A stretch of 61,340 bases of DNA from Rhodopseudomonas sp. BR0M22 (GTDB lineage Bacteria > Pseudomonadota > Alphaproteobacteria > Rhizobiales > Xanthobacteraceae): NCBI RefSeq assembly GCF_010907035.1, contig NZ_QUMK01000030.1, forward strand, positions 1 through 61,340, written 5' to 3'. A program made the translations under genes and the position numbers. The number at the start of each line of letters is the position of its first letter. The first letter of the stretch is position 1. Of the stretch, positions 36,106 through 55,355 are shown in pieces. The notes beneath the pieces are model-generated. The model was not told where the DNA came from. It made no database searches and saw nothing but the letters and a program-made list of their open reading frames with translations.

Positions 36106-36182
36106 CGGAGTGTGGCTCAGCCCGGTAGAGCACTGCGTTCGGGACGCAGGGGTCGCAGGTTCGAATCCTGCCACTCCGACCA
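36106..36182 (+). tRNA. tRNA-Pro (anticodon CGG)
   Basis: The 77-base gene folds into a complete cloverleaf: acceptor CGGAGTG/CACTCCG, D stem GCTC/GAGC, anticodon stem CTGCG/CGCAG with loop TTCGGGA (anticodon CGG), T arm GCAGG-TTCGAAT-CCTGC. A discriminator A is followed by an encoded CCA at 36180-36182. It reads proline CCG codons. The 305 bases that follow up to the SseB stop contain no supportable gene. The monooxygenase block starts just beyond, which is a typical insertion setting although no integrase or att repeat is visible. Confidence 0.97.
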
Positions 36183-36487: not shown

Positions 36488-37009
36488 CTATTCTCTGTGC
36501 CCAGAGCTTTTCGGGATGATCCGACCCGGCGGGACTATGGGAGTCTTGCCAGAGGCGTGACCTTGCGTCGGCGACGGAGAATGTCGTCGGCCGGATGTCG
36601 CACCGACCGCTGCGAAGATCTTGCCGCCGGTGATCATTTCGATCTCCGGCGCGGGCAGAGGCTTTTGGCATTCGGACGATGGATTGAGCCAGAAGTTCGA
36701 CCCCGGCAGCATCGCGAACAAATCCGCGGCGACAGCGCCGAGACAGCTTTCGGGTTCCCTGACGTATTCGGAGATGCGCAGCTGCGAGGTGAAGGCCGGA
36801 TGCCAACGTAGCCCCTGAAATTCGACCGTGGCGACGTTGATGGTCTCCTGTGGCTGCAGCGCACGGCTTTCGCCGGGCGCAACGGGCGCCTCCGGCACCA
36901 GGATGTAGATCTCGGTGTTGAGCAGCGCCTGATAGAATGCCGGCGCGGCATCCGGATCGCGAGCGGCGGCCTGCATCAACGCTTCGAGATTGTTCTGCGG
37001 TTCGAACAC
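36488..37009 (-). CDS. SseB-domain protein, C-terminus possibly degenerate
   Basis: Residues 1 to about 125 match the SseB N-terminal domain: 'NLEALMQAAARDPDAAPAFY', 'ALLNTEIYILVPE', 'GLRWHPAFTSQLRISEYV' and 'LNPSSECQKPLPAPEIEMI'. The last 45 residues (from 'FAAVGATSGRRHSP' on) are Pro/Ser/Gly-rich and unlike the usual SseB continuation, so the 3' end may have decayed by a frameshift. The 173-aa length is short for a two-domain SseB but not unusual for one domain. It lies 34 bp downstream of the AcoR1 stop in the same direction. Function unclear; SseB in E. coli affects serine sensitivity. Confidence 0.65.
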   Translation of the reverse strand: MFEPQNNLEALMQAAARDPDAAPAFYQALLNTEIYILVPEAPVAPGESRALQPQETINVATVEFQGLRWHPAFTSQLRISEYVREPESCLGAVAADLFAMLPGSNFWLNPSSECQKPLPAPEIEMITGGKIFAAVGATSGRRHSPSPTQGHASGKTPIVPPGRIIPKSSGHRE

Positions 37010-37043
37010 GGACGTCCTCCCTGCTGGTGTGCGACGTGACCCA

Positions 37044-38966
37044 TCAATCCGGCTCGCGCAGCGCGCGATAGATCATGTTGCGCGACACGCCGAGCCGGCG
37101 CGCCGCCTTGCTGACGTTGTTGCCGGCTTCGGCATAGGCGCTGAGCAGTTGCGCGCGCTGCAGATCGCGCAGCCCGCGCTTGAGACCGCCGCCGCTCGGT
37201 ACGCCCGCAGACAGCCGCTTGGCGGAGAGATCGCCAAGCGCGGTTTTGACCGCGGCCTCGCCGATCAGGCAGCCTTGTTCGGCGAGCGATAGCCGCGACA
37301 GTACGTTGCGCAATTGCCGGATGTTGCCATGCCATTCGAGCTCGGTCAGCCGTTCGATTGCGCCCGGCGTCAGCCGTGCCGACGGATCGATCCGGGACAT
37401 CACATGCCTTGCGATGTCGGCGAAGTCGGATCGCGCGCGCAGCGGCGGTAGCGTGACCTCGAGCGTGTTCAGGCGAAACAGCAGATCGGCACGGAAGCGG
37501 CCCTTGGCGATCGACTCGTCGAGATCGGCATTGGTGGCCGACACCAGTTGCACGTCGACCTTGCGCTTGGCGCCGCCGACCGGGCGCACCGTCCAGTCGT
37601 CGAGGAAGCGAAGCAGCACCGCCTGCAGCGACACCGGCATGTCGCCGATCTCGTCGAGAAACAGCGTTCCGCCATCGGCCTCCCTGAACAGTCCGGTCGA
37701 TCCGCCCTTGCGCGCGCCGGTGAACGAGCCCTCGGCGTAACCGAACAATTCGGCCTCGATCAGACTGTCGGGCAGCGCCGCGCAGTTCACCGGGACGAAT
37801 GATCCGCTGCGGCGGCTCGCAGCGTGGGCATGGCGGGCGAGCTGTTCCTTGCCGGTGCCTGTCTCGCCGCGCACCAGGATCGGCATCCTGCGCGCCGCCG
37901 CGTTCTCGACCTGGCGCACGATCGCCGCGATCGCCGGATCGGCGGAAACGAATTCGATGGCGGGCTGCGGCTGCGGCGCCGGGACGCGCGGCTGCGACAG
38001 CATCGGGAACTGACGCGTGTTCTCGATGGTGGCGACGAACTGGCTGCCGACGTCGTCCTCCAGGCTCTGCCGCTCGCTGCGCCGGCCTTCGTCGACGAAG
38101 CGGGTGAAGTTGGTCCGGAACACATCGGCGAAATGGCGTCCGGCCGCGGCCGGCAACCCGTGTAGGAGCACGCGCGCCGCACGATTAGCGGCGAGAATGC
38201 CGCCATCCTCGTCGATCGCGAGCAGGCCGGCGCTCAGCGTGTGCAAGTACTCGCCGCGATTGTGAAACGCGATCAGAATGTTGCCGCGGTGATACTCCCG
38301 AAACAGCCCGTTTTCGATCTGCGTCGCCGCCATTCCCACGAGAGCCTGGGTGTGGGTCTGGCGCGACAGACAATCTGACGAGGCGTCGAGGATGCCGGTG
38401 AGTTCGCCGTCCGGCGCGAAGATCGGAGCCGCGACGCAGGTCAGGTTGTTGTAGCGCGGAAAGAAGTGCTGATCGCCGTGGACCGCGACCGGCCGCTTGA
38501 GATGCGCCGCGGTGCCGAGCCCGTTGGTTCCGCAATGACGCTCGGTCCACAGCGCGCCGGGCCTGATGCCCGCCGCGTCGGACGCGTCGCGGAAGCTGCG
38601 ATCGCCGATGATGTCGAGCAGCAGGCCTTCGGCGCTCGCGAAAGCCACCATGAAATTCGAGCCGGAGATCTGCTGATGCAGCGTGTGCATCTCGGCCAGC
38701 GCCAATCCGCGCACCAGCGAGCAGCGTTGTTGCTCCTGGCGCAGCGTGGCCGGGTTGACGAACTCCGGCGGCGGCGGCTGCCGCATATCGAGTCCGAGTG
38801 CGATGCAGCGCATCCAGCTGTCGTAAATATCGACCGGCATGTAGCCGGCGGGTGAGCCGCCGCGTTGCTCGAGCGCCAAGCCGATATTGTCGAGGCGACG
38901 CCCGGCCAGCAGCATCGACTGCCCTCCCTGATCCAGCATCAGACGTTCCTCCGTCCCGCGAGCCAT
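37044..38966 (-). CDS. AcoR-type sigma-54-dependent activator, copy 1
   Basis: The 640-aa protein has an N-terminal GAF-like sensor (about residues 45-205, 'GALWTERHCGTNGLGTAAHL', 'GELTGILDASSD'), a PAS-like stretch (230-290), the sigma-54 AAA+ domain (325-545) and a Fis HTH ('NNVSKAARRLGVSRNMIYRA') at the end. Walker A is GETGTGKEQLARHA and Walker B LFLDEIGD. The sigma-54 contact loop reads GSFTGA instead of GAFTGA. It resembles AcoR and MimR, activator of Mycobacterium mimABCD. The ATG at 38966 follows GAGAAG. The gene is divergent from the monooxygenase operon, whose sigma-54 promoter and palindromic upstream site lie in the 270-bp gap. The inducer is unknown. Confidence 0.88.
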   Translation of the reverse strand: MARGTEERLMLDQGGQSMLLAGRRLDNIGLALEQRGGSPAGYMPVDIYDSWMRCIALGLDMRQPPPPEFVNPATLRQEQQRCSLVRGLALAEMHTLHQQISGSNFMVAFASAEGLLLDIIGDRSFRDASDAAGIRPGALWTERHCGTNGLGTAAHLKRPVAVHGDQHFFPRYNNLTCVAAPIFAPDGELTGILDASSDCLSRQTHTQALVGMAATQIENGLFREYHRGNILIAFHNRGEYLHTLSAGLLAIDEDGGILAANRAARVLLHGLPAAAGRHFADVFRTNFTRFVDEGRRSERQSLEDDVGSQFVATIENTRQFPMLSQPRVPAPQPQPAIEFVSADPAIAAIVRQVENAAARRMPILVRGETGTGKEQLARHAHAASRRSGSFVPVNCAALPDSLIEAELFGYAEGSFTGARKGGSTGLFREADGGTLFLDEIGDMPVSLQAVLLRFLDDWTVRPVGGAKRKVDVQLVSATNADLDESIAKGRFRADLLFRLNTLEVTLPPLRARSDFADIARHVMSRIDPSARLTPGAIERLTELEWHGNIRQLRNVLSRLSLAEQGCLIGEAAVKTALGDLSAKRLSAGVPSGGGLKRGLRDLQRAQLLSAYAEAGNNVSKAARRLGVSRNMIYRALREPD

Positions 38967-39046
38967 ATTCGGCTTCTCGTTGCGGCGTTCGAATTTCAAC
39001 ATATTCCAACTAAGCAAAATTCCAAAACGGTCGTTCCCCGCGAGAA

Positions 39047-39086
39047 GTGTTCCGTCGCGGAACACCAGTGTTCACCACGCTGGTCC
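39047..39086. promoter_or_regulatory. Putative upstream activating sites for the AcoR-type regulator
   Basis: GTGTTCCGTCGCGGAACAC (39047-39065) is a perfect 8-bp inverted repeat with a 3-base centre. A second copy of GTGTTC begins at 39068, exactly 21 bases (two turns) further on, with a weaker right half. The pair lies 66-105 bases upstream of the -24 element, a normal distance for a sigma-54 activator site. Confidence 0.65.
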
Positions 39087-39151
39087 GATGCGGATCGTGC
39101 CTGCGCTGCAGCACTTTCTGGAAGTGTATGCAATTCAGTCTGTTAGTCGCG

Positions 39152-39167
39152 TGGCATGGCTCTTGCT
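39152..39167 (+). promoter_or_regulatory. Sigma-54 (-24/-12) promoter of the monooxygenase operon
   Basis: TGGCATGGCTCTTGCT matches the consensus TGGCAC-N5-TTGCW at all essential positions; GG and GC are exactly 10 bases apart. Transcription should start near 39178, about 60 bases before the dehydrogenase ATG. The match with two flanking sigma-54 activator genes makes this a strong call. Confidence 0.85.
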
Positions 39168-39236
39168 GTTGTTAGTTCGTCGCCGGCGTCAACATGGTGA
39201 CGGAACAAAAATAATTTCCAGGGAGCGAAGGGTTCA

Positions 39237-40280
39237 ATGAAAGCCGCGGTTCTGCATGAATTCGACGAGAAGCTGACAGCGAAGGAATTCGTCAAATACG
39301 AGGACGTGGCGGACCCGAAGATCACGCGGCCGTCGGACGTCGTGGTGCGGATCGGCGGCGCGGGCGTGTGCCGGACGGATCTGCACATCGTCGAAGGCAT
39401 CTGGCGCAGCAAGGTTGACGTCAACCTGCCTTACATCATGGGCCACGAGAATGCCGGCTGGGTCGAAGCGATCGGCCCCGGTGTCGAAGGCATCAAGGTC
39501 GGCGATCCGGTGATCTGTCATCCGCTGGTGACCAGCGGTCACTGCCTGGCGTGTCGGCGCGGCAACGACATGCACGCCGACGGCAGCGTGTTCCCCGGCA
39601 TCAATGCCAATGGCGGCTACGCGGAGTATCTGCTGACGGGGCAGCGTTCGCTGATCAAGTTGCCGAAGACGCTCGCGCCGAAAGATGTAGCTCCCTACAC
39701 CGACGCCGGTCTCACCGCGTATCGAGCTGCCAAAAAGGCGTCGCGGCATCTGTTGCCCGGCCAATACGTTGCGGTCATCGGCGCCGGCGGCCTCGGTCAT
39801 ATCGGCATTCAGGTTCTGGCGGCGTTGTGCGCCGCCGAAATCATCGTGGTCGATCGCGACGACAAGTCGCTCGAACTCGCCAAGACCTGCGGCGCGCACC
39901 ATCTGGTGAAAGCCGACGGCAACGAGGTCGAAGCGATGCTGGCGCTGACCGCCGGGCGCGGTGCCGAAGCCGTGATCGATTTCGTCGGCGAAGGCGAGGC
40001 CGTCGCCCGCGGTCTGGCGATGACGGCCAACGACGGCTTCTACTACGTGGTCGGCTACGGCGGAAAAATCGAACTGCCGACCATCGACCTGATCACCTCG
40101 GAAAAGACCATCGTGGGCAATCTGGTCGGCAGCTATGCCGAGCTTGTCGAACTGATGACGCTCGCCGATCGCGGTCTCGTTCAGCTTCACACCAAGGAAT
40201 ACAAGCTCAGCGCCGCCAACGACGCGCTGCACGATCTGCATCATGGCCGCATCCACGGCCGGGCCGTGCTGGTGCCATGA
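39237..40280 (+). CDS. Zinc-type alcohol dehydrogenase, first gene of the monooxygenase operon
   Basis: The 347-aa medium-chain dehydrogenase has catalytic-zinc ligands Cys45 ('GAGVCRTDLH'), His70 and Glu71 ('IMGHENAGWVE'), and a Rossmann motif 'VIGAGGLGHIGIQVL' followed by 'IIVVDRDD', whose Asp favours NAD. The structural-zinc lobe, normally with four Cys, reads 'SGHCLACRRGNDMHADG' and has only two, so this site is probably empty. In di-iron monooxygenase clusters this gene oxidises the alcohol product (for example 2-propanol to acetone, or acetol onward). The ATG follows CAGGGAGCGAAG. The next gene overlaps its stop by 4 bp. Confidence 0.88.
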   Translation: MKAAVLHEFDEKLTAKEFVKYEDVADPKITRPSDVVVRIGGAGVCRTDLHIVEGIWRSKVDVNLPYIMGHENAGWVEAIGPGVEGIKVGDPVICHPLVTSGHCLACRRGNDMHADGSVFPGINANGGYAEYLLTGQRSLIKLPKTLAPKDVAPYTDAGLTAYRAAKKASRHLLPGQYVAVIGAGGLGHIGIQVLAALCAAEIIVVDRDDKSLELAKTCGAHHLVKADGNEVEAMLALTAGRGAEAVIDFVGEGEAVARGLAMTANDGFYYVVGYGGKIELPTIDLITSEKTIVGNLVGSYAELVELMTLADRGLVQLHTKEYKLSAANDALHDLHHGRIHGRAVLVP

Positions 40281-40699
40281 CGAACCGCTGCGAGGCGGTT
40301 CGCTCGCCGCCGCAAACCTGGATGGGCGACATGACCAAGAGCAGTGCGGACGATCCGCCGGATGCCGACAGGTCGGATCGCGACGCGGCCCGCGCTAGCA
40401 TGCTGGCACGGCACCGGCTGATCGAAGCGATCATCCGCAACAACGAGGCGCAGCTGCGCAATGATAGCGCGCGCGGCGGCGCCGAGATCGAACTGCATTG
40501 CGCGCTCCGCGACAGCAAACTGCCGGATGCGGGGACCGACGCGACTGCCGAAGTCGAGCGGATGACCGCGCGACTGCGGCAGTTGCGGGACGAACACGAA
40601 CGCCTCGTCGCCGAACGCGAGTGGCTGAACGCCTCGCTGCTCGAGTTCGACGCGGGACCACAGGGCGGGGGCCACAACCACCGAACGGGAAACGCATGA
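40277..40699 (+). CDS. Unrecognised protein in monooxygenase operon, 140 aa
   Basis: I recognise no family. The first 45 residues are hydrophilic and Asp/Ser-rich. Residues 46-125 form long charged helices: 'ARHRLIEAIIRNNEAQLRND', 'EVERMTARLRQLRDEHERLV', with heptads suggesting a coiled coil. The end 'AGPQGGGHNHRTGNA' is flexible. It starts in the dehydrogenase stop codon (ATGA) and overlaps the next gene by 4 bp (ATGA), so all three are coupled; an internal ATG at 40331 is an alternative. Coupling between the dehydrogenase and hydroxylase genes suggests an accessory or assembly role, which is only inferred. Confidence 0.75.
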   Translation: MTNRCEAVRSPPQTWMGDMTKSSADDPPDADRSDRDAARASMLARHRLIEAIIRNNEAQLRNDSARGGAEIELHCALRDSKLPDAGTDATAEVERMTARLRQLRDEHERLVAEREWLNASLLEFDAGPQGGGHNHRTGNA

Positions 40700-40974
40700 T
40701 GACCAGCAACAGCATCGGGACTGCGGGGAAGGGACCGGGCGCAGACGGCTTCGCGCCATCCGACCCGATCGAACTCAGCGACGAGGACCGCTCTAAAGAC
40801 GGCTTCTTCGTGCAGCTCGCGGGCGTCGCCGAGGCGATGATCGCCGAGCACGGCAAGGACTTCGCGATGGGCGCGCTCGTGCTCACGGCGCGGTTCATCG
40901 CCGAAGGCAAGCCCCTCACCAAGGGCGCTGCGAGTCTCGACCCGGCCCAGCGGCCGGTTTCCGGCCCGTCCTGA
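40696..40974 (+). CDS. Unrecognised protein in monooxygenase operon, 92 aa
   Basis: No family recognised. The protein is small and acidic at the front ('DPIELSDEDRSKDGFFVQLA') with a hydrophobic helix-rich middle 'GVAEAMIAEHGKDFAMGALV' and 'LTARFIAEGKPLTKGAASLD'. It has no signal peptide, and the middle is too short and polar to be a clear membrane anchor. Two ATGs (40696 and 40699) sit at the start; the first overlaps the upstream stop. It is the last of three coupled genes, 108 bp before the hydroxylase gene. It may be a monooxygenase accessory protein. Confidence 0.75.
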   Translation: MMTSNSIGTAGKGPGADGFAPSDPIELSDEDRSKDGFFVQLAGVAEAMIAEHGKDFAMGALVLTARFIAEGKPLTKGAASLDPAQRPVSGPS

Positions 40975-41082
40975 ACGACGGACCTCCGACCATCGGACGC
41001 CACCGCTCTAACCGCGACAACACCGGCTTCCGACCAACAAAGGCAGAGAGTGAAGTCAACGCAACGTCCAAGGGAGAAGTAA

Positions 41083-42756
41083 ATGTCCGAGACACTGACG
41101 CTGAACAAGATCGTGAACCAGAAGGGGATCAGCACTGCGGAAGCCGCGAATCGGGTGTCCGATCTCGGCTGGACGCCGAGCTACGTCCAGGAGGCGATGA
41201 CCTTCCCGACCGACTACAAGATCTCGCGGGTGCCGCGCGACCCGATGAAGCAGGTCTTGCGCTCCTACTTCCCGATGCAGGAGGAGAAGGACAATCGCGT
41301 CTACGGCGCGCTCGACGCGGCGCTGCGCGGCGACATGTTCCGCAATGTCGAGCCGCGCTGGGTCGAATGGATGAAGCTGTTCCTGGCGATCATTCCGTTT
41401 CCGGAGATCTCCGCGGCGCGGTCGATGGCCATGGTCGGCCGGCTGGCGCCGGGCGAGGAACTGCGCACCGGCTTTACCATGCAGATGGTCGACGAGTTCC
41501 GCCACTCCACGATTCAGATGAATCTGAAGAAGTGGTACATGGAAAACTACATCGATCCGGCCGGCTTCGACATCACCGAAGCGGCATTCGGCAAGTGCTA
41601 CGCCACCACGATCGGCCGGCAGTTCGCCGAAGGCTTCCTCACCGGCGACGCCATCACCGCCGCCAACATCTACCTGACGGTGGTGGCCGAGACCGCCTTC
41701 ACCAACACGCTGTTCGTCGCCATGCCGTCGGAAGCCGCCCGGAACGGCGACTATGCGCTGCCGACCGTGTTCCTGTCGGTGCAGTCCGACGAATCGCGCC
41801 ACATCGGCAACGGTCACTCGATGCTGATGGCGATGATCCACGATCCGTCGAACCACCAGCTGCTCGAGCGCGACCTGAAATACGCATTCTGGCAGAACCA
41901 CGCCATCGTCGACGCCGCGATCGGCACCTTCATCGAATACGGCACCACCAACCGCGACAAGAACAAGGAATCCTACGCCGAGCTGTGGCACCGCTGGATC
42001 TACGAAGACTACTACCGGACCTACATGCTGCCGCTCGAAAAATACGGCATCAAGATCCACCACGACGACGTCGCCGAGGCCTGGGACCGGATCGTCAAGA
42101 AGAATTACGTCCACAAGACCGCGCAGTTCTTCTCGGTCGGCTGGTCGTTCAACTTCTGGCGGATCGAAGCCCAGACCGAGAAGGACTTCGAATGGTTCGA
42201 GCACAAGTACCCGGGCTGGTACGCCGAATTCGGCGATTACTGGAAGTGGTACGCGAAGCTGTCGAAGCCGGGCGAGAAGGTGATCGCCTTCAATTCCGAC
42301 GTCGGCTACGTCTATCCGCACCGCTGCTGGAGCTGCATGGTGCCGTGCCTGATCCGCGAGGATTTCTGCTGCGACGAAGTCGACGGCAAGGTCTACACCT
42401 ACTGCTCGGAAGGCTGCCGCTGGACCCACAAGGTGGCGTTCGCCGCCGAGTACGAAGGTCGCGCCACGCCGGCGATGGGGCGCTTCAGCGGTCGGCGCGA
42501 GTGGGAGGAGTGCTACCACGGCTGGGATCACGCCGACGCCCTGGTCGATCTCGGCTTCGTGCGCTCCGACGGTAAGACGCTGGTGCCGCAGCCGCACCTG
42601 CGTTTCGAGCAGAAGGACATGTGGACGCTCGACCACGTCCGCGGCAACACGCTCGGCAGCCCGCTGCGCGCGTTCCGTGCATTGAAGCCCGGCGCCGAAC
42701 GCGACGCCGCCGTCGCCGAGTATCGCAAGGGCTTCACCATCAACCCCTGCAACTGA
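41083..42756 (+). CDS. prmA: Soluble di-iron monooxygenase, hydroxylase large subunit (MimA/PrmA type)
   Basis: This subunit holds the di-iron centre that activates O2 for hydroxylation of small alkanes, ketones or phenols. Six ligands are visible: E108, E138 and H141 (DEFRH), E203, E237 and H240 (DESRH). Their spacings (30, 3, 65, 34, 3) equal those of methane monooxygenase MmoX (E114, E144, H147, E209, E243, H246). A Cys-rich C-terminal part follows ('HRCWSCMVPCLIREDFCC', then 'YCSEGCRWTHKV'), as in MimA/PrmA. The 557-aa length is typical. It is preceded by AAGGGAGAAG and belongs to the sigma-54 operon. Propane, acetone and phenol are all known substrates of this branch, so the true one is open. 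Confidence 0.95.
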   Translation: MSETLTLNKIVNQKGISTAEAANRVSDLGWTPSYVQEAMTFPTDYKISRVPRDPMKQVLRSYFPMQEEKDNRVYGALDAALRGDMFRNVEPRWVEWMKLFLAIIPFPEISAARSMAMVGRLAPGEELRTGFTMQMVDEFRHSTIQMNLKKWYMENYIDPAGFDITEAAFGKCYATTIGRQFAEGFLTGDAITAANIYLTVVAETAFTNTLFVAMPSEAARNGDYALPTVFLSVQSDESRHIGNGHSMLMAMIHDPSNHQLLERDLKYAFWQNHAIVDAAIGTFIEYGTTNRDKNKESYAELWHRWIYEDYYRTYMLPLEKYGIKIHHDDVAEAWDRIVKKNYVHKTAQFFSVGWSFNFWRIEAQTEKDFEWFEHKYPGWYAEFGDYWKWYAKLSKPGEKVIAFNSDVGYVYPHRCWSCMVPCLIREDFCCDEVDGKVYTYCSEGCRWTHKVAFAAEYEGRATPAMGRFSGRREWEECYHGWDHADALVDLGFVRSDGKTLVPQPHLRFEQKDMWTLDHVRGNTLGSPLRAFRALKPGAERDAAVAEYRKGFTINPCN

Positions 42757-42774
42757 GCGAGGTCGGAAGGCGAG

Positions 42775-42796
42775 GGGGCCGCTCAGCGCGGTCCCC
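42775..42796 (+). other. Intercistronic stem-loop between prmA and prmB
   Basis: GGGGCCGC (42775-42782) pairs with GCGG-T-CCCC (42788-42796, one bulged T) around TCAGC. There is no T-run, so it is more likely an mRNA 3'-end stabiliser than a terminator. It may raise prmA transcript levels over downstream genes. Confidence 0.4.
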
Positions 42797-42861
42797 TGGT
42801 CCCCCGCCGATGCGGCGCCGCGCGCGCTGTGAGCTTCGTTCCCCTAACCAGGCCGAGATCC

Positions 42862-43905: not shown

Positions 43906-43972
43906 CGGCCGATGCTTTCCACGACGACCGAACGCCGTTCGGCGAGATTAATCATAACCCAGGGAGGATGAC

Positions 43973-45037
43973 ATGAGTGCGAGCCCACAGACCGTGCAGA
44001 AGTCCGGTGCCGCCGGATCGGCGATCTTCGCCGGATCCGACAGTCGTAAGTACAATTACTACGAGCCCAAGGCCCGCAAGGCGACGCATTACGAGGACAT
44101 GACCGTCGACGTGCAGCCCGATCCGGAGCGCTATCTGCTGCAGGATTGGATCATCTCGTTTCCGGACGGCACGCCGACCTATTCCAAGACCTGGACCAAG
44201 GCGCTGAGCTCGAACTGGCATCAATTCCGCGCCGTCGATCAGGAGTGGGAGCGCACGCACTATCAGCGGCAGTCGACGATCTGCGGCATGGTGCAGGGCG
44301 TCATCGAGAATGCGCGCAAGTCCGGCGCGCCGAAGCGCTTCGACGCCGCATGGGTCAAGGTGCTGCAGGATCATCTCGGCGCCTACAAGCACGCCGAATT
44401 CGGGCTCGGCACCTCGCTGATGCAGGCGCAGCGCTACGGCTACACGCAGATGATCAACAACGCGACGCTGACCAATTCGTCCTACAAGCTTCGCTTCTCG
44501 CAAGACCTGACGCTGTATCTCAGCGAGATCGGCATGGATCTCGGCAACTTCGACCACACCGCAGGCAAGACGCACTGGCTCGAAGATCCGATCTGGCAGG
44601 GGACCCGCAGGGCGATCGAAGCCATCATGGGAGCGACCGACTATCTCGAGCAGTATCTCGCGACCAACCTGGTGTTCGAGCCGCTGGTCGGCGAGCTGTT
44701 CCGCAGCGGCTTCATCATGCAGATGGCCGCGTCGCAGGGCGATTTCGCGACGCCCTCGGTGGTCGCGGCGGCGGAAGCGGACTATGAGCGCAATCTCGCC
44801 AACACCGTCGAGCTGGCGCACATGCTGACGCACGACAAGGAGCACGGCGCGCACAACACCAAGCTGTTCAACGGCTGGATCGCCCATCACGGCGCGCTCG
44901 CCAAGGAGGCCGCCGCCAATCTGCAGCCGATCTGGTCGCAGCCGCGCGTCAAGGTGTCGAGCTTCGACGACGCGCAGGAGCGCGCGCACAACCGGATCCA
45001 GACGATCTGCTCGCAGGTCGGCCTCAAGGCGCCGTAG
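43973..45037 (+). CDS. prmC: Soluble di-iron monooxygenase, hydroxylase small (beta) subunit
   Basis: The 354-aa protein aligns in pattern with the beta subunits of the MimC/PrmC and toluene/phenol monooxygenase type: 'YNYYEPKARKATHYEDMTVD', 'WIISFPDGTPTYSKTWT' and 'LSEIGMDLGNFDHTAGKTHW'. It continues with 'LEDPIWQGTRRAIEAIMGAT' and 'EPLVGELFRSGFIMQMAA'. It is all-helical and lacks the DExRH ligands, as expected for a non-catalytic subunit that forms the (alpha-beta)2 core. It has a CAGGGAGGA ribosome site and lies 67 bp from prmB. Confidence 0.95.
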   Translation: MSASPQTVQKSGAAGSAIFAGSDSRKYNYYEPKARKATHYEDMTVDVQPDPERYLLQDWIISFPDGTPTYSKTWTKALSSNWHQFRAVDQEWERTHYQRQSTICGMVQGVIENARKSGAPKRFDAAWVKVLQDHLGAYKHAEFGLGTSLMQAQRYGYTQMINNATLTNSSYKLRFSQDLTLYLSEIGMDLGNFDHTAGKTHWLEDPIWQGTRRAIEAIMGATDYLEQYLATNLVFEPLVGELFRSGFIMQMAASQGDFATPSVVAAAEADYERNLANTVELAHMLTHDKEHGAHNTKLFNGWIAHHGALAKEAAANLQPIWSQPRVKVSSFDDAQERAHNRIQTICSQVGLKAP

Positions 45038-45116
45038 CGGCCTCACCGCGGCGCGCGGACAGTCGTCCGGGCGTCGCTCGACCCCCTTCAAGCCATCACC
45101 TGTTCAGGAGAACGAC

Positions 45117-45476
45117 ATGACCGAGGCCGCGACCAACATCTTCAAGTCGATGAAGGACATCAAATTCGAAGAGACGATCTCGCATCAATGCGGGGTCACG
45201 ATGAACGACAGCGTCGAGGCGCGCGCCATCGCCGAAGTGATGGAGCAGAAGGCCGGCGTCAAGGTGACGTTCATGCCGGCGATGATCCGGATCGACGGCG
45301 AGGGCAAGCTGGTCTTCAAAATGAGCGAGATCAGCGAAGCGCTCGGCCGCGAGATGACACCGTATCTGTTCGAGATCTCGACCTCCACGCATTACGGCCG
45401 AATGGTGATGGTCGACGACGACACCGTGGTCTGCTTCGGCGACATGAACGAAGCGCTCGCCTACATCGAGCACTGA
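45117..45476 (+). CDS. prmD: Monooxygenase coupling (effector) protein, MmoB/DmpM family
   Basis: The 119-aa cofactor-free protein binds the hydroxylase and tunes substrate access and O2 reactivity. It shows the MmoB/DmpM pattern: 'CGVTMNDSVEARAIAEVMEQ', 'KAGVKVTFMPAMIRIDGEGK', 'FEISTSTHYGRMVMVDDDTV' with 'VCFGDMNEALAYIEH' at the end. It lies 79 bp downstream of prmC with a CAGGAG ribosome site. A strong stem-loop follows, before the accessory genes. Confidence 0.93.
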   Translation: MTEAATNIFKSMKDIKFEETISHQCGVTMNDSVEARAIAEVMEQKAGVKVTFMPAMIRIDGEGKLVFKMSEISEALGREMTPYLFEISTSTHYGRMVMVDDDTVVCFGDMNEALAYIEH

Positions 45477-45482
45477 TGCGGC

Positions 45483-45509
45483 GCAGGGCCGGGCACAGTC
45501 CGGCCCTGC
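45483..45509 (+). other. Strong intercistronic stem-loop after prmD
   Basis: GCAGGGCCGG (45483-45492) pairs perfectly with CCGGCCCTGC (45500-45509) around a 7-base loop, 6 bases after the prmD stop. No T-run follows. It divides the structural genes prmABCD from the amidohydrolase-DUF59-groEL part and could set a higher level of the former. Confidence 0.5.
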
Positions 45510-45572
45510 CTGACAGAGATCCAACGATCAACAATCGATGTGCCCAACGCGGCACGACCAGGGAGAAGCGCG

Positions 45573-46613
45573 ATGTACAGGACCGCATCAGGGGAAGAGA
45601 TCTTTGTGATCGACGGCCACACCCATTTCTGGGACGGCAGCCCGGCGAACCAGAAGAACATCCACGGCAAGCAATTCATCGAGTGTTTCTATGCCTATCA
45701 CGCCAATCTGAGCCCGCCCGACGAAAAGTGGACGCTTGAGCAGTTCGAGAAGTACGACGCCAGGACGATGCACGACGATCTGTTCGTGCGTGGCTACGAC
45801 GATATGGCGATCTTGCAATCGACCTATCTGACCGATTTCTACAACCACGGCTTCAACACTGTGGAGCGTAATGCGGCGTTGAAAAGCGAGTATCCGGAGC
45901 GCTTTATCCTCAACGGCGCGTTCGACCCGCGCGACGGCAACAAGGGACTCGAGCAGCTGCACGCCGACGTCGAGAAGTACAAGCTGACCGGCGTCAAGCT
46001 TTACACCGCCGAATGGCGCGGCGAGTCGAAGGGCTACCGGCTCGACGACAAGGAGTCCTATACGTTCCTCGAGGCCGCAGAGAAGCTCGGCATCAAGAAT
46101 ATTCACGTCCACAAGGGCCCGACCATCATCCCGCTGAACAAGGACTCGTTCCATGTCGGCGATATCGACGACGTCGCGACCTCGTTCCAGGGGCTCAACT
46201 TCATCGTCGAACACTGCGGCCTGCCGCGGCTCGACGATTTCTGCTGGATCGCCACCCAGGAGACCAACGTCTATGGCGGCCTCGCGGTGGCGTTGCCGTT
46301 CATCCACACCCGCCCGGCCTATTTCGCGCATGTGATGGCCGAGCTGCTGTTCTGGATCGGCCCGGACAAGATTCTCTATGGCAGCGACTACGGCATCTGG
46401 ACGCCGAAATGGCTGATCGATCGCTTCATGGCGTTCGAGATTCCGGAGGAGCTCAGCAAGGAAACCGGCGCGGTGCTGACGCTGGAGACCAAGAAGAAGA
46501 TCCTCGGGCTCAACGCGGCACGGCTCTACAACATCGATATCGACGCCCAGAAGCAGCGGATCGGTGCGGCCGGCGGCTACGATCACCTCGCCGCAGCTCA
46601 CGCGGCGGAGTGA
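45573..46613 (+). CDS. Amidohydrolase-2 family protein conserved in propane-type monooxygenase clusters
   Basis: The 346-aa TIM-barrel hydrolase has the metal-binding HTH motif in 'FVIDGHTHFWDG' near residue 16, His in 'GIKNIHVHKGPTIIP' near residue 178, 'FIVEHCGLPRLDDFCW' near residue 213 and Asp in 'ILYGSDYGIWTP' near residue 270. Such a gene directly follows mimD/prmD in Mycobacterium and Gordonia-type clusters, where its role is not established; it may act on a metabolite or in maturation. It has an AGGGAGAAG site and lies 4 bp before the DUF59 gene. Confidence 0.88.
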   Translation: MYRTASGEEIFVIDGHTHFWDGSPANQKNIHGKQFIECFYAYHANLSPPDEKWTLEQFEKYDARTMHDDLFVRGYDDMAILQSTYLTDFYNHGFNTVERNAALKSEYPERFILNGAFDPRDGNKGLEQLHADVEKYKLTGVKLYTAEWRGESKGYRLDDKESYTFLEAAEKLGIKNIHVHKGPTIIPLNKDSFHVGDIDDVATSFQGLNFIVEHCGLPRLDDFCWIATQETNVYGGLAVALPFIHTRPAYFAHVMAELLFWIGPDKILYGSDYGIWTPKWLIDRFMAFEIPEELSKETGAVLTLETKKKILGLNAARLYNIDIDAQKQRIGAAGGYDHLAAAHAAE

Positions 46614-46617
46614 GGCG

Positions 46618-47382
46618 ATGACTGCCGTGACGATCGCAGATCTTGAGGCCGAGGTCTGGCGCGCATTGGAGACCATCACCGATCCGGAGCTCGACGAATC
46701 GGTGACGGATCTGAAGTTCGTCACGGGGGTCGATGTGGATGCGGGTTACCGCGTCCACATCGGCTTCCGCCTGCCGACCTATTGGTGCGCCGCCAACTTC
46801 TCGTTCCTGATGGCCGACGACATGCGTACCGCGGTGCTGCAGCTGCCGTGGGTGCGCTCGGTCGAGGTCACGCTCGGCGAGCACATGTATGCCGACAAGA
46901 TCAACACCGGCCTGAAGGAGGGGCGGTCCTTCGAGGAGACGTTCGGCGAGGAAGCCGATGGCGATCTCGTCGAGGTGCGGCGAACCTTCCTGCTGAAGGC
47001 ATTGCAACGTCGGCAGGCGGCGCTGCTGGCGCATCTGATCGATCAGGGCTTCGCGCCGACGATGCTGGTCGATCTGACTTACCACGAACTCGCGGCGCTG
47101 GATCTCGACCAGGCGGGTGCCCGGCTCGTCGCGCGCTACCTGGAACGGCGTCCGGTCGTCGCCGGCGCCAATGCGGGTCTGGCCTTCGTCGATGTCGAGG
47201 GACAGCCGCTGCAGGCCGAGACGCTCGCTGCCTATGTTCGCGCGTTGCGGCGCGTCGACGTCAACGCCGAGTTCAACAGCGCGCTGTGCAGAGGGTTGTT
47301 GCATGTCCGCTTCGATACCGAGACGCCGCTAACGTCCCGGCGCGCAAAACCGCAGGACCAGACGCAACGCGCGCCCGTTTAG
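46618..47382 (+). CDS. DUF59 (MIP18/PaaD-like) protein with long C-terminal extension
   Basis: Residues 1 to about 110 are a DUF59 domain of the Fe-S carrier family (SufT/PaaD/MIP18): 'EVWRALETITDPELDESVTD', 'FRLPTYWCAANFSFLMADDM', 'LPWVRSVEVTLGEHMYADKI'. The conserved Cys is present, but the Pro that usually follows (T..CP) is Ala. The remaining 140 residues ('RRTFLLKALQRRQAALLAHL', 'DLTYHELAALDLDQAGARLV', 'VNAEFNSALCRGLLHVRFDT') belong to no domain I know and contain another Cys. Total 254 aa against about 100-150 for plain DUF59 proteins. Its place before groEL suggests delivery of iron or folding help to the di-iron hydroxylase. Confidence 0.85.
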   Translation: MTAVTIADLEAEVWRALETITDPELDESVTDLKFVTGVDVDAGYRVHIGFRLPTYWCAANFSFLMADDMRTAVLQLPWVRSVEVTLGEHMYADKINTGLKEGRSFEETFGEEADGDLVEVRRTFLLKALQRRQAALLAHLIDQGFAPTMLVDLTYHELAALDLDQAGARLVARYLERRPVVAGANAGLAFVDVEGQPLQAETLAAYVRALRRVDVNAEFNSALCRGLLHVRFDTETPLTSRRAKPQDQTQRAPV

Positions 47383-47414
47383 CTCGCACACAACAAAAAC
47401 CAGGGAGGATCACG

Positions 47415-49043
47415 ATGGCTAAGATGATGCTTCACGATGCCCCGGCGCGCGAAGCGCTGGGACGCGGGGTCGCCAAGCTGGCGAAAGCAGTCAGCGGAAC
47501 GCTCGGGCCGAAGGGGATGAATGCCGTCATGGACCGGCCGATCGGTACGCCGCTGGTTTCGCGCGACGGCGTCAGCATCGCGGCCGAAATCGAGCTGGAA
47601 TGCCCGTTCGAGAATATGGGGGCGCAAGTGCTGCGCGAGGTCTCGAAGCAGACCAACGAGGTCGCCGGCGACGGCACCACGACGGCGACCGTGCTGGCGG
47701 ATTTCCTGGTGCAGCAGGGTCTCAAGCTGCTCGCCGGCGGTGCCAACGCGGTCGAGCTCGTCGAGGGGGTGGAAGCCGCCGTCGAGGAAACCATCAGGGC
47801 ACTCAAACGCGCAGCGAAACCGGTCGACGGTCCGAACGGCATTCGCGCCATCGCCACGATCGCTGTCAACGATGCCCGGCTCGGCGCGATGGTCGCAGAA
47901 GCGTTTGCGCGCGCCGGCAATCACGGCATCGTCGCGGTGGAGTTCGGCTCCACGGTCGAGACCACGCTGGAAGTCGTCGAGGGCATGGCGTTCGAGCGCG
48001 GCTATCTCTCCCACCACATGGTCACCGACGTGGAGCGCATGCAGGTGGTGCTCGACGAGCCCTACATCCTGATGACCGACCACAAGATCCAGACCAGCGA
48101 TCAGCTCGCCGGTGTGTTCGCGCTGATCGAGAAGAGCGGGCGACCGCTCCTGATCATCGCCGAGGAGGTGGCACCGCCGGTGATCATGATGCTGCTGTCG
48201 CGGCGCGAGAAGACCAACATCAAGGTCGCGGCGATTCACCCGCCGGAATATGGCCACTGGCGCAAAGCCATGCTGGAAGACATCGCGGTCGCGACCGGCG
48301 GCCGGGTGATTTCACGTGATCTCGGCGGCACATTGGAACGCGCCAAGCTCGAGGATCTCGGCGCAGCGCGGCAGGTGCGGATCTCGTCCTCTAAGACGTT
48401 GATCACGGCAGGCCACGGTAAACCTAACGAAATCGAAGCTCGCCGCGCGCAGGTGCTGCGGCAGTACGAGGCCGCTCCGGAAAACATCGAACGCGATAAA
48501 TTCCAGGAGCGATTGGCCAAGCTTTCCGGTGGTACGGCGATGATACTCGCCGGCGGCGCCACGCCGGTCGAACAGAAACGCCGCGCGCAACTGATCGAGG
48601 ATTCGATCAACGCCACCCGCGCGGCGATCGAGGAGGGCATCGTGCCCGGCGGCGGTGTCGCCTTGATCAGGGTCGCCCCCGAACTCGATGGCTTGATCGG
48701 AAAGCTCGAGGGCAGCGCGCGGCAGGGCGCGGAGCTGGTGCAGCGTGCGCTGAGCCAGCCGCTCGCCTGCATCGTTGCTAATTGCGGCCGCGACAGCTCC
48801 GCCGCTGTCGACAAAGTCGCCAAGGCCAGCAACGGTTACGGCTTCGACGCACGCACCGGCACCACGGTCGACATGATCAAGTCCGGCATCATCGATCCGG
48901 TGAAGGTCAGCTACTCGGCCGTCCGCAACGCCGGCTCTGTCGCCGCACTGATCCTGACCACACAGACGCTGATCGCCAAGAAGCCGGAGGTTCACGACAT
49001 CACCGCCGAACCCGCCCGTGGCGGCGGCGCGGAGCTGCTGTGA
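47415..49043 (+). CDS. groEL: Chaperonin GroEL paralogue dedicated to the monooxygenase (MimG-like)
   Basis: The 542-aa protein has all GroEL landmarks: 'TLGPKGMNAVM' near residue 30, the nucleotide loop 'GDGTTTATVL', 'GIVPGGGVALI' near residue 410 and 'GYGFDARTGTTVDMIKSGII' near the end. It departs from housekeeping GroEL in many places and ends RGGGAELL instead of a GGM-repeat tail. No groES accompanies it. In Mycobacterium, MimG is a GroEL-like protein needed for productive folding of MimA, so the same role is likely here. It uses an AGGGAGGAT site and is the last gene of the operon. Confidence 0.92.
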   Translation: MAKMMLHDAPAREALGRGVAKLAKAVSGTLGPKGMNAVMDRPIGTPLVSRDGVSIAAEIELECPFENMGAQVLREVSKQTNEVAGDGTTTATVLADFLVQQGLKLLAGGANAVELVEGVEAAVEETIRALKRAAKPVDGPNGIRAIATIAVNDARLGAMVAEAFARAGNHGIVAVEFGSTVETTLEVVEGMAFERGYLSHHMVTDVERMQVVLDEPYILMTDHKIQTSDQLAGVFALIEKSGRPLLIIAEEVAPPVIMMLLSRREKTNIKVAAIHPPEYGHWRKAMLEDIAVATGGRVISRDLGGTLERAKLEDLGAARQVRISSSKTLITAGHGKPNEIEARRAQVLRQYEAAPENIERDKFQERLAKLSGGTAMILAGGATPVEQKRRAQLIEDSINATRAAIEEGIVPGGGVALIRVAPELDGLIGKLEGSARQGAELVQRALSQPLACIVANCGRDSSAAVDKVAKASNGYGFDARTGTTVDMIKSGIIDPVKVSYSAVRNAGSVAALILTTQTLIAKKPEVHDITAEPARGGGAELL

Positions 49044-49113
49044 GAGTGCACTCGTCGGTGCAGCCCTCGGAAAGCTTCCACTGATTGAAGCGATACGACC
49101 GTGACCACGTGCC

Positions 49114-49223
49114 GGGCTCCTCATCCCGAGGAGCCCGGCGAAGCCGGGCGTCTCGAAGGATGGGCCACGTTCGACTCGCGGCCCATGGTTCGAGACGGCG
49201 CTGCGCGCCTCCTCACCATGAGG
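49114..49223. repeat. Intergenic palindromic repeat (family C)
   Basis: It begins GGGCTCCTCATCCCGAGGAG and ends CCTCCTCACCATGAGG. The inner arms CGTCTCGAAGGATGGGCC and GGCCCATGGTTCGAGACG are near-perfect inverted copies around 13 bases. This is a well-known type of Bradyrhizobiaceae repeat. It lies between the convergent groEL and AcoR2 genes and could act as a bidirectional terminator or transcript end. Confidence 0.75.
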
Positions 49224-49277
49224 TTGTGCCCGTTGAGAGCGTCTCGGTGAATCAAGAAGTATACTGTTGGATAGCGA

Positions 49278-51257
49278 TCACCGCGGCGCCGTCTGACCCA
49301 GCGCGCGGTACACCGTGTTGCGGGATACGCCGAGGCGGCGGGCGGTTTCGCTGACATTGCCGGCGGTCTCGGCATGCACCGCGAGGATGCTGGCGAGCTG
49401 CATGTCCTGCAACGATCCGAGCTTCGTTGGTGGTGTCTGGCCGATCAGGTCGGCAATCGTCGCCGATCCCGGCTCGTCGCCGCAGGCGAGGGCGATGCGC
49501 GCCAGGATGTTGCGCAATTCGCGGATATTGCCGGGCCAGGATCGTGCCGCAAGCGATGCGATCGTCTGTGCTCCGACGTTGCAGCGCGGATCGATGCCGT
49601 CGATCAGATGTCGCACGATCGACTCGAAGTCGGTCCGATCGCGCAGGCGCGGCAGGGTGACTTCGACCGTGTTGAGCCGATACAGCAGGTCGGATCTGAA
49701 ACGGCCCTGGGCGACCGCGTCCTCGAGTCCCGCATTGGTGGCCGAGACCAGAAAGACATCCACCCGCTTGCGTGCGCCGCCGACCGGCCGCACCGTCCAA
49801 TCGTCGATCAGACGCAGCAGCACTGCCTGCAGTGCGATCGGCATGTCGCCGATTTCGTCGAGGAACAAGGTCCCTCCGTCGGCTTCCTGCACCAGCCCGG
49901 GCGCGCCGCCGCGGCGGGCGCCGGTGAACGCGCCCTCGGCGTAGCCGAACAGTTCGGCCTCGATCAGGCTGTCCGGCAGCGCCGCGCAGTTGACCGGCAC
50001 GAAGGCGCCGGTTCTGCCGCTGGCGGCGTGGGCATGGCGGGCGAGCTGTTCCTTGCCGGTGCCGGTCTCGCCGAGGATCAGGATCGGCACTTTTCGGGCG
50101 GCAGCGATTTCGACGCGGCGGACGACGGCCTGCACCGCCGGATCAGCAGCGACGAAGCTGGTCGCCGGCGAAGGGGAACGGCGCGATTGCCGATTCGCAG
50201 GACGGGCACAGTCCGGACGCTTTGTGGCCGGATCCTCGCAAAAGCGTAAGCCTGGAGGCGGCGCCGGCCGCGCTTCCGAATTCGGTCGGCGATCACCGGG
50301 CGGATCCGCCCGCTGCGGGCTGCGATCCGAGCCGCTGGGCCGCCGCCTCGCGTGCAGCACGATCACGGCGCCAATTCCGGTGTCCTCATGGGCGACGAGA
50401 TCGAAGCTGGCGCTCGGAATCAGCTCCTTCAGCTTCGTCGGCCAGTCGGTGAAGTCGAGCTGCTTGAGGATCCGGGTCGGCGGATCGTGGGCGCCGCCAC
50501 GCCGGCTGTCGGCGATTGCCTTGCGGGCAATCTCGCTGCCGTGAAGGATATTGCCGCGCCGATCGATCAGCAGACATTCGTCGGCTGCCCAGATCGCGCG
50601 GTTGGCGAGATAGTGCTGCAGCAGGCGTTCGTGATCTTCCTTGATGGCGCGGGCCAGCACGCTTTCGACCTGCTGCCCGACGCAGACCGCGAGCGCCAGG
50701 CTGTGCGGATTGAAAGTCGCAGCCGGTCCGGAAATGTCGACGATGCCGAGGACTTCGCCGTCGATTGGATCGCGTACCGGAACCGCCGCGCAAGTCCAGC
50801 GCTGGACTTCGGTGCAGAAGTGCTCGGCGCCGTGGATCTGCACCGGCCGCGCTTCCGCCATCGCCGCGCCGATCGCGTTGGTGCCGATATCGGCCTCGCT
50901 CCAGCGGCCGCCATGTTCGAGATGCACGGCCCGCCCGGCATCGATCACGCGCGCGTCGCCTTCGGTATCGATGATGAGACCCGATGGGTCGGTCAGGATC
51001 ATGATTGAATGGGCATCGCTCAAAAACGTCCGAGAGTTCTCCAGCGCCGGACGTGCTGCGTGACGTAGCGCGCCGTGCTTGGCGCGCTGACGAAACAGCT
51101 CGGCTTCGGCGACCAGCGGAGCGGTCGCGCGGTCGACTGCGACTTGATGGCGACGTGAACGCTGCCACGAATTCGCCACAGGGGACCGCAGCTCGCCCGC
51201 CAGCGCGCCGCGTTCAACGAAGCGCTCCCAGGCGGCGCGAACGTCTCGCTGGTCCAT
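49278..51257 (-). CDS. AcoR-type sigma-54-dependent activator, copy 2
   Basis: The 659-aa protein repeats the architecture of copy 1: a GAF sensor (residues 40-215, 'GRWSEADIGTNAIGAAMAEA', 'GEVLGIVDISGPA'), a PAS-like piece (235-305), the AAA+ domain (about 370-575) and a Fis HTH ('GNVSETARRLGVSRNTVYRA'). Walker A is GETGTGKEQLARHA; the sigma-54 loop is the standard GAFTGA. Between sensor and AAA+ there is an Arg/Pro/Ser-rich linker of about 60 residues absent from copy 1. The ATG at 51257 follows AAGGGAG. It closes the right side of the monooxygenase block. The 431 bp upstream (51258-51688) hold no recognised site or gene. Confidence 0.87.
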   Translation of the reverse strand: MDQRDVRAAWERFVERGALAGELRSPVANSWQRSRRHQVAVDRATAPLVAEAELFRQRAKHGALRHAARPALENSRTFLSDAHSIMILTDPSGLIIDTEGDARVIDAGRAVHLEHGGRWSEADIGTNAIGAAMAEARPVQIHGAEHFCTEVQRWTCAAVPVRDPIDGEVLGIVDISGPAATFNPHSLALAVCVGQQVESVLARAIKEDHERLLQHYLANRAIWAADECLLIDRRGNILHGSEIARKAIADSRRGGAHDPPTRILKQLDFTDWPTKLKELIPSASFDLVAHEDTGIGAVIVLHARRRPSGSDRSPQRADPPGDRRPNSEARPAPPPGLRFCEDPATKRPDCARPANRQSRRSPSPATSFVAADPAVQAVVRRVEIAAARKVPILILGETGTGKEQLARHAHAASGRTGAFVPVNCAALPDSLIEAELFGYAEGAFTGARRGGAPGLVQEADGGTLFLDEIGDMPIALQAVLLRLIDDWTVRPVGGARKRVDVFLVSATNAGLEDAVAQGRFRSDLLYRLNTVEVTLPRLRDRTDFESIVRHLIDGIDPRCNVGAQTIASLAARSWPGNIRELRNILARIALACGDEPGSATIADLIGQTPPTKLGSLQDMQLASILAVHAETAGNVSETARRLGVSRNTVYRALGQTAPR

Positions 51258-51688
51258 GTCGGCTCCCTTGGCGTCATGGCATCCGAGGCGCCGATGAGCG
51301 GCGCCCAACCGGGCCGCTGCCCGGCTGCTCGCGATCACCTCGGCGAATTCGTTGACCCTCGACATGTCCCGCGCGAACTCGCTCAGTGTCTGTAAGGAGG
51401 CTGGCGAACTCGCGAATGGTGAACTTATACCTCCTCAGCAAAGTGGCAAGAAATAGTCCGTGCCGAATGCGGCAAGCCAAGAAGAAATCGTTGTTGCAAT
51501 GCGGTTGCGAAGAACTTCTGGTTTGCATTGCGAGACGAGCGTGACTACCACGACGTGTAGCACGTTGCCGATACTGCTCGTTGTCGGCGCTGGCGTTCTT
51601 TGCGCGTTTCGTCGCACAATTGGCGTGACGACAACAGCGCCGCTGAGTGGCGCCTGCCCTGAATTCCGTCAGCAGAGGAAGGCCCGTA

Positions 51689-54165: not shown

Positions 54166-54185
54166 CCTCGCCCGTGCTGCGTCAT

Positions 54186-55295: not shown

Positions 55296-55355
55296 CCGAG
55301 GTCTTACCCTCCCCATCAACATCGCCCGATGCGGCAAGGTCTGAAAGGACAATCG

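What the first reader, a model, noticed from the sequence alone, without database searches (positions are those of the whole stretch)
36488..51257. Complete MimABCD/PrmABCD-type monooxygenase island in a probable phototroph, just past tRNA-Pro
All parts of a propane/acetone/phenol-type soluble di-iron monooxygenase system are present: four core subunits, alcohol dehydrogenase, amidohydrolase, DUF59 protein, a dedicated GroEL and two sigma-54 activators. The large subunit has six di-iron ligands spaced exactly as in MmoX. The block begins 0.3 kb after tRNA-Pro(CGG), a common insertion position. If the organism is a Rhodopseudomonas, this could let it use propane, 2-propanol or acetone, or small phenols.
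Basis: partly seen in the sequence, partly recalled or inferred. Interest (0 to 1): 0.8.

Follow-up and report, generated by a model that had tools for sequence, protein, structure and literature searches.

The report
Monooxygenase gene block in a phototroph
A purple photosynthetic bacterium carries a complete, well-preserved gene set for an oxygen-using enzyme that probably oxidises small compounds such as acetone, 2-propanol or propane; the enzyme type is known, but the set sits between different neighbours in different genomes and includes a small unstudied protein that usually goes with this enzyme in related bacteria.

Summary
Window 36588-52087 is a 15.5 kb block encoding a group-5 soluble di-iron monooxygenase (mimABCD order), alcohol dehydrogenase, amidohydrolase, DUF59 protein, GroEL and two sigma-54 activators. 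The genome has two Photo_RC genes; its genus includes Rhodopseudomonas sp. AAP120. MimA falls with Rhodococcus PrmA (100/100), in a proteobacterial branch known from Methylocella. The block follows tRNA-Pro, where four near relatives hold an unrelated 6-8 kb. Three other same-genus genomes, and one of another genus, carry it between other flanks. No att repeat or integrase was found, composition is host-like and divergence core-like, so recent tRNA-directed integration is not shown. Best reading: a functional module for 2-propanol/acetone via acetol, perhaps propane; phenol is less supported. Most novel point: the small orf2 family, without database match, is in 21 of 22 group-5-positive genomes among 397 of the order, and otherwise only as two degenerate hits. 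Verdict: new member of a known kind, with one unstudied accessory gene worth testing.

The parts
36106..36182 (+). tRNA-Pro(CGG); left border of the variable site
   Evidence: ARAGORN, Rfam RF00005; left-flank similarity to 6 same-genus genomes ends at 36182-36191
36588..52087 (.). conserved block (same ends within a few tens of bases in G011, G007, G001; in G020 the alignment stops before the last gene)
36488..37009 (-). SseB N-terminal-domain protein; conserved part begins at about 36588
   Evidence: PF07179 E 2.9e-16; similarity edge
37044..39065 (-). sigma-54 activator a (GAF-AAA+-Fis HTH)
39152..39167 (+). -24/-12 sigma-54 promoter-like site TGGCATG-N4-TTGCT, 70 bp before ADH
   Evidence: only match in the window, 0.05 expected; a similar site before ADH in 32 of 82 loci, background 0.013 per 300 bp
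39237..40280 (+). zinc-dependent alcohol dehydrogenase (ADH)
   Evidence: PF08240/PF00107; best PDB sequence 1h2b alcohol dehydrogenase E 4.5e-101
40331..40699 (+). orf1, small protein, coiled-coil-like by eye, no family above cut-off (frame open from 40277)
   Evidence: dN 0.10, dS 0.43 against G011
40696..40974 (+). orf2, small protein of a family linked to mimA; its start overlaps the orf1 stop
   Evidence: dN 0.10, dS 0.35 against G011
41083..42756 (+). mimA-type hydroxylase large subunit with six di-iron ligands
   Evidence: PF02332 E 6.1e-63; alignment to MmoX; tree
42829..43905 (+). mimB-type reductase (Fer2-FAD-NAD)
43973..45037 (+). mimC-type hydroxylase small subunit
   Evidence: PF02332 E 5.3e-75
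45117..45476 (+). mimD-type coupling protein
   Evidence: PF02406 E 5.9e-26; NF045941 MimD 111.1 bits, below its cut-off of 150
45573..46613 (+). Amidohydro_2 protein with intact metal-ligand pattern (ORF listed from 45540)
   Evidence: model fold like ACMSD / dihydroxybenzoate decarboxylases
46618..47382 (+). DUF59/FeS_assembly_P protein with C-terminal extension
   Evidence: PF01883 E 3.9e-13; alignment
47415..49043 (+). GroEL of the block (MimG-like by position)
   Evidence: NF009487 700 bits; best PDB chaperonin E 1.4e-150
49278..51365 (-). sigma-54 activator b, paralogue of a
   Evidence: cross-similarity of a to b copies 71-78% DNA
51689..52084 (+). glyoxalase-I-like VOC protein, right end of the block
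   Evidence: PF00903 E 7.4e-12; NF050074 lactoylglutathione lyase 115.7 bits, cut-off 165

Best explanation
The block is a functional catabolic module built around a group-5 soluble di-iron monooxygenase. Inferred working: small C3 substrates (2-propanol, acetone, perhaps propane) or their products are sensed by the two GAF-domain sigma-54 activators; RNA polymerase-sigma54 starts at the 39152-39167 site and reads ADH-orf1-orf2-mimABCD-amidohydrolase-DUF59-GroEL. The block's GroEL folds the MimA/MimC hydroxylase; MimB passes electrons from NADH and MimD couples O2 activation. ADH oxidises 2-propanol to acetone (or acetol to methylglyoxal), the hydroxylase oxidises acetone to acetol, and the glyoxalase-like protein helps remove methylglyoxal towards lactate. 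The block occurs between different flanks in different genomes of the genus; here it stands in place of other DNA behind tRNA-Pro. Shown: gene content, ligand positions, clade, promoter-like site, purifying selection, patchiness and changed flanks. Inferred: substrates, operon, regulation, chaperone role, route of transfer.
For: Domains and ligands. Tree: window with two Rhodococcus PrmA rows 100/100, with the R. ruber YYL row 99/95, apart from the other types. mimA dN 0.002, dS 0.21 against AAP120. Promoter-like site. Acetone route, from relatives: in an actinobacterium the Mim cluster is strongly induced on acetone and on 2-hydroxyisobutyrate, and acetone hydroxylation to acetol is proposed (PMC7176365, abstract and passages); [quoted passage not shown] in M. 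[quoted passage not shown] The window's last gene is 75% identical to the VOC gene of a GMC module in Bradyrhizobium CB82.
Against: No growth or enzyme data for this strain were found. No GMC acetol oxidase was found in 30000-58000 of the window. M. silvestris PrMO is reported to make mostly 1-propanol from propane, and the model of that species gives the acetone-to-acetol step to P450s, not PrMO (PMC7364539). MimD and the VOC protein score below their NCBIfam cut-offs. Acetone carboxylase gamma (PF08882) was not found in 16 genomes, but no control genome rang, so absence is not shown. Downstream steps elsewhere in the genome were not searched for.
Confidence: 0.62

Rival explanations
1. Aromatic route: the enzyme mainly hydroxylates phenol-like compounds (phenol to hydroquinone) and the amidohydrolase processes an aromatic carboxylate.
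For: Mycobacterial MimABCD is known for phenol para-hydroxylation (recalled). After an uncharacterised TIM-barrel protein as first hit, the amidohydrolase model is closest in fold to dihydroxybenzoate and carboxyvanillate decarboxylases, LigJ hydratase and ACMSD (Foldseek, TM about 0.5-0.6, 12-16% identity).
Against: No ring-cleavage gene was annotated in the block; the fold match is at superfamily level and no PDB sequence matches, even by profile; the amidohydrolase also sits in actinobacterial propane clusters (PMC4428276, passages).
Confidence: 0.17
2. Propane (or another gaseous alkane) is the real growth substrate and acetone oxidation is secondary.
For: Group-5 prmABCD is described as fundamental for propane growth in Mycobacterium, Rhodococcus and Gordonia (PMC11057499, passages); Methylocella prmA is required at high propane (PMC7660913); in Caballeronia the cluster lies beside methylcitrate-cycle genes.
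Against: [quoted passage not shown] silvestris.
Confidence: 0.18
3. Origin by vertical descent: the genus ancestor had the block, most species lost it, and it was moved by rearrangement rather than gained laterally.
For: Synonymous divergence of block genes from AAP120 (0.15-0.67) is like that of two core genes (0.37, 0.45); GC is host-like.
Against: The five nearest genomes at this site (91-93% flank identity) all lack a mimA match anywhere; four of them share the same other DNA at the site, and the block has different flanks in the five genomes compared (for G007 on one side only, its contig ends there).
Confidence: 0.35
4. Decayed or silent relic.
For: None found.
Against: Frames of the annotated genes are open; mimA dN 0.002 against dS 0.21; promoter-like site kept.
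Confidence: 0.02

Closest known systems
Group-5 propane monooxygenase of Methylocella (PrMO; prmABCDGR in PMC6778391, passages)
   Same: Same proteobacterial branch of MimA/PrmA (M. tundrae 79% identical; tree), A-B-C-D order, GroEL and a sigma-54 regulator
   Different: The M. tundrae plasmid locus has no match to amidohydrolase, DUF59, ADH or orf2 in 23.6 kb and has a GMC/VOC/cytochrome module
Actinobacterial prmABCD / mimABCD (Rhodococcus, Gordonia, Mycobacterium)
   Same: A-B-C-D order; metal-dependent hydrolase, metal-sulfur cluster protein, ADH and GroEL downstream (PMC4428276, passages; L034)
   Different: 63-64% identity of the large subunit in two plasmid records; no orf2-like gene found in those two loci, L034 and L039; ADH lies downstream there, upstream here
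Bradyrhizobium BTAi1 locus (L051; a photosynthetic strain, recalled) and loci L050-L060
   Same: Same gene order including SseB, ADH, orf1, orf2 and promoter site; MimA 91-93%
   Different: Other genera; L054 is cut short and L060 shows no second activator in the locus
Group-6 SDIMO (SmoABCD; PH-06 PrmABCD; group names recalled)
   Same: di-iron monooxygenase with a GroEL gene beside it
   Different: Order alpha-beta-coupling-reductase and another place in the tree

Membership tests
Group-5 SDIMO (PrmABCD/MimABCD) | Large subunit in the PrmA/MimA clade | tested here: met
   Tree of 48 rows: 100/100 with two Rhodococcus PrmA rows, 99/95 with R. ruber YYL; the program warns of long branches among outer rows; group labels of reference rows are recalled. 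BCP1 PrmA (R. aetherivorans) is group 5 per PMC11057499 (passage); L034 is the same species, but identity to BCP1 PrmA was not tested.
Group-5 SDIMO (PrmABCD/MimABCD) | Six di-iron ligands | tested here: met
   Spacing identical to MmoX
Group-5 SDIMO (PrmABCD/MimABCD) | Order large subunit-reductase-small subunit-coupling protein, no Rieske or gamma subunit among them | tested here: met
   the group-2 and group-6 loci fetched differ
Group-5 SDIMO (PrmABCD/MimABCD) | GroEL gene in the cluster | tested here: met
   47415-49043
NCBIfam NF045941 MimD equivalog | Curated score cut-off of 150 bits | tested here: not met
   111.1 bits
Propane/acetone monooxygenase (function) | Turnover of propane, acetone or phenol | not testable with these tools
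   needs enzyme or growth assay
tRNA-integrated genomic island | Insertion at the 3' end of a tRNA gene | tested here: met
   Synteny with relatives breaks at 36182-36191 and resumes at 52214-52238
tRNA-integrated genomic island | Direct repeat of the tRNA 3' end at the far edge, and an integrase | tested here: not met
   Only one tRNA match in the window; a 45-bp repeat exists in relative G005 but not here; no integrase among the genes annotated in the block
Glyoxalase I (NF050074) | Curated cut-off 165 bits | tested here: not met
   115.7 bits

The most novel reading that the evidence does not exclude
orf2 (with orf1, and in most of the other proteobacterial loci a WD40 gene beside it) is an unrecognised partner of the proteobacterial group-5 monooxygenase: a two-helix protein that binds the hydroxylase or its chaperone during assembly or gates its activity, in the way that MmoD does for methane monooxygenase (MmoD comparison recalled).
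Probability: 0.45. Interest if true: 0.6.

Novelty: new member of a known kind. Interest (0 to 1): 0.42.

Why it matters
The proteobacterial branch of group-5 monooxygenases is reported to group organisms with no known alkane growth, so its natural substrate is open (PMC7660913, passages). A genus with closely related carriers and non-carriers makes that testable. If orf2 is an assembly or control factor, it could be a missing part for making these enzymes in other hosts.

Tried and rejected
Frames 39551-40699 (+) and 54132-56738 (-) were first taken as genes; neither matches Pfam and overlapping frames do. A dedicated WD40 protein elsewhere in Rhodopseudomonas: hits of 36-40% occur in 15 of 16 genomes whether or not they carry mim, so unspecific. 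Structure search for orf2: best PDB hit E 4.3; no Pfam, NCBIfam or PDB sequence match of weight (best single-member E 0.0075 to a DNA-binding protein model). PDB sequence or profile relatives of the amidohydrolase: none at E 0.001 and 0.01. Conserved ends of the block as mobile-element ends: the right edge falls at the end of the VOC gene and the left in the end of the SseB gene, and no shared terminal sequence was seen by eye. Genes in three alternative tRNA-Pro inserts (10 ORFs of L129, L133, L139): curlin repeat, lytic transglycosylase, chemoreceptor and an EAD5 domain, six without a match, no integrase. Papers: 'propane monooxygenase' with 'WD40' gave 0 papers; 'propane monooxygenase', 'Rhodopseudomonas' and 'acetone' gave 2, of which PMC9213486 uses the genus name only for Rhodoblastus and in a reference and PMC10316377 was seen as a listing only; some searches were seen as listings apart from the papers cited here by passages.
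Full report
What is there. The window is contig C83 of a 5.29 Mb, 159-contig genome. Behind tRNA-Pro(CGG) at 36106-36182 lies a gene block: SseB-domain gene, sigma-54 activator, ADH, two small genes, mimA, mimB, mimC, mimD, amidohydrolase, DUF59/FeS-assembly gene, GroEL, second sigma-54 activator, glyoxalase-like gene. Two stretches of the whole genome match the hydroxylase family PF02332 at E<=0.001, namely mimA and mimC. The di-iron ligand positions have MmoX spacing.

Which monooxygenase. A tree of 48 large subunits places the window with two Rhodococcus PrmA rows (100/100) and, further out, the R. ruber YYL row (99/95), away from the reference rows for groups 1, 2, 4 and 6 and the group-3-like row (group labels recalled; the program warned of long branches among the outer rows). 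The nearest rows are G007, AAP120, G001 and G020, then Bradyrhizobium. A review describes the Methylocella proteins as a distinct cluster in group 5 that groups with organisms not known for alkane growth (PMC7660913, passages); M. tundrae falls in the same proteobacterial branch as the window.

Distribution. Large-subunit matches at E<=1e-50 occur in 24 of 397 genomes of the order, 22 of them at 80-100% identity and 2 at 32%, and in 6 of 385 genomes of the class draw, 3 of them at 77-100% and 3 at 33-35%. In the genus 4 of 16 genomes, the window's own included, have a 99-100% copy; G002 has only a distant 29% protein, which the tree puts beside a toluene-4-monooxygenase-type row (96/70). Among 72,556 plasmid records, 15 hold an 80-90% copy, one of them partial.

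Site. The left flank (33000-36191) is found contiguous at 88-93% in 6 of 15 other same-genus genomes (G010, G004, G015, G003, G005, G011), and the right flank resumes at 52214-52238 in the five of these that were read across. In G010, G004, G015 and G003 the stretch between is an orthologous, unrelated ~6 kb (with 2 kb more in G010); in G005 it is other DNA with a 45-bp copy of the tRNA 3' end, as expected of an attachment site. So the site is variable and tRNA-linked in this genus. The window itself has no such repeat, and no integrase was annotated in the block. The same block lies between different flanks in G011, G007 and G001; G020 of another genus carries it without the last gene in the alignment. 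One limit: G007's contig ends 99 bp beyond the block on one side.

Age and selection. Against AAP120, block genes have dS 0.15-0.67 and two core genes 0.37 and 0.45; mimA has dN 0.002 and dS 0.21. Against four near genomes that lack the block, one core gene has dS 0.21-0.25. GC of the block is 0.63-0.65, of the rest of the window 0.64-0.68. This fits gain from a related lineage, or loss in the near relatives; it does not suggest a recent gift from a distant donor. Lateral movement is favoured by the changed flanks but not proved.

Control. One TGGCAYR-N4-TTGCW site is in the window (0.05 expected), 70 bp before ADH. A slightly looser pattern is found within 300 bp before ADH in 32 of 82 loci with a testable upstream stretch, before mimA in 15 of 91, before the amidohydrolase in 0 of 85 and before GroEL in 0 of 87, against a background of 0.013 per 300 bp. 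L049-L060, G001, G007, G020 and the window all have it before ADH. With two sigma-54 activators in the block, sigma-54 control of an ADH-to-GroEL transcript is likely; it was not shown.

Accessory genes. In the 80 named loci (tblastn, coverage at least 30%): amidohydrolase 75, DUF59 73, GroEL 75, orf2 family 72, ADH 72, WD40 gene 55, orf1 family 39, an extra RpoN 14; some loci are cut short by contig ends, and WD40 hits may be unspecific. Five lack an amidohydrolase hit (L071, L081, L082, L083, L089; three of these are under 12 kb). The plasmid loci of Azospirillum B510 and M. tundrae lack amidohydrolase and DUF59 while keeping GroEL. The amidohydrolase keeps HxH, H179/H181, H215 and D273 in 17 of 17 rows of A7; in Rhodococcus JS3073 the second His of HxH is Ala. 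Its model (pLDDT 86.9) resembles ACMSD-type decarboxylases at TM about 0.5-0.6 and 12-16% identity, the first hit being an uncharacterised TIM-barrel protein. Its job, catalysis or maturation, is unknown.

orf2. The family (30-row alignment A2) has no Pfam, NCBIfam or PDB match of weight and is predicted as a helical hairpin at about residues 29-70, 40 residues of the model having pLDDT of 90 or more. In the order draw it is found in 23 of 397 genomes: 21 of the 22 group-5 genomes, plus G238 (E 1.7e-8, three stops inside) and G355 (E 0.003, three stops inside). The one group-5 genome without it, G216, has only 1,235 bases of sequence before mimA. Fisher's exact test gives 1.3e-31, not corrected for kinship. 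Of the 21, 19 lie on the mimA contig: 17 within 5 kb on its 5' side and two at about 10 and 11 kb on the other side; two are on other contigs. G176's copy has one stop inside. In the class draw (385 genomes) the two strong hits are both group-5 genomes; G447 (77% MimA) lacks it, and two weak hits (E 0.003, 0.008) look like chance. So the link is strong but not absolute, and the two actinobacterial loci tested (L034, L039) show none.

Function. For the C3 reading I rely on literature on relatives: acetone to acetol by Mim and induction of its cluster (PMC7176365), Methylocella prmA in 2-propanol and acetone growth (PMC7660913), and the acetol step with a lactoylglutathione lyase gene of near number in M. 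silvestris (PMC7364539), all seen as passages. The window's VOC protein is 75% identical to one in a GMC/VOC/cytochrome module of Bradyrhizobium CB82. Against it: M. silvestris PrMO is reported to make mostly 1-propanol from propane and its model gives the acetone step to P450s, and in Caballeronia the cluster lies beside methylcitrate-cycle genes, which would suit a propionate-yielding route from propane.

Judgement. The finding is real and complete, and of a known kind. Its use lies in closely related carriers and non-carriers in one genus, and in the unstudied orf2 family.

Noticed in passing
49082-49247: Dispersed palindromic repeat between GroEL and the second activator; the (truncated) hit list shows many copies of about 110-170 bp at 80-94% in the genus. 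No blastn match in the joined G011, G001 and G007 stretches, and one 75% match in G020's, outside its block.
   Followed up: partly
56609-56706: A second dispersed, hairpin-forming repeat with many listed copies in the genus, on the 3' side of an acyl-CoA dehydrogenase gene.
   Followed up: partly
L133:1165-1246 and 5076-5120: In relative G005 the same tRNA-Pro site holds a ~4 kb stretch bounded by a 45-bp copy of the tRNA 3' end; three of its ORFs match no Pfam family.
   Followed up: partly
L037:6825-8087; L121, L122, L124 and 11 more named loci: Mim clusters of Rhodobacterales-type records carry their own extra RpoN (sigma-54) gene near the WD40/orf2 genes: 14 of 80 named loci plus plasmid pAMI4.
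   Followed up: no
L079: Record titled Mycobacterium sp. KBS0706 has a proteobacterial-type MimA (85%) with sigma-54-type promoter sites; the organism name may be wrong.
   Followed up: no
L039:16497-17537: Rhodococcus JS3073 amidohydrolase has Ala for the second His of the HxH metal motif.
   Followed up: no
34936-35985: Another Amidohydro_2 gene sits in the core flank just before tRNA-Pro.
   Followed up: no
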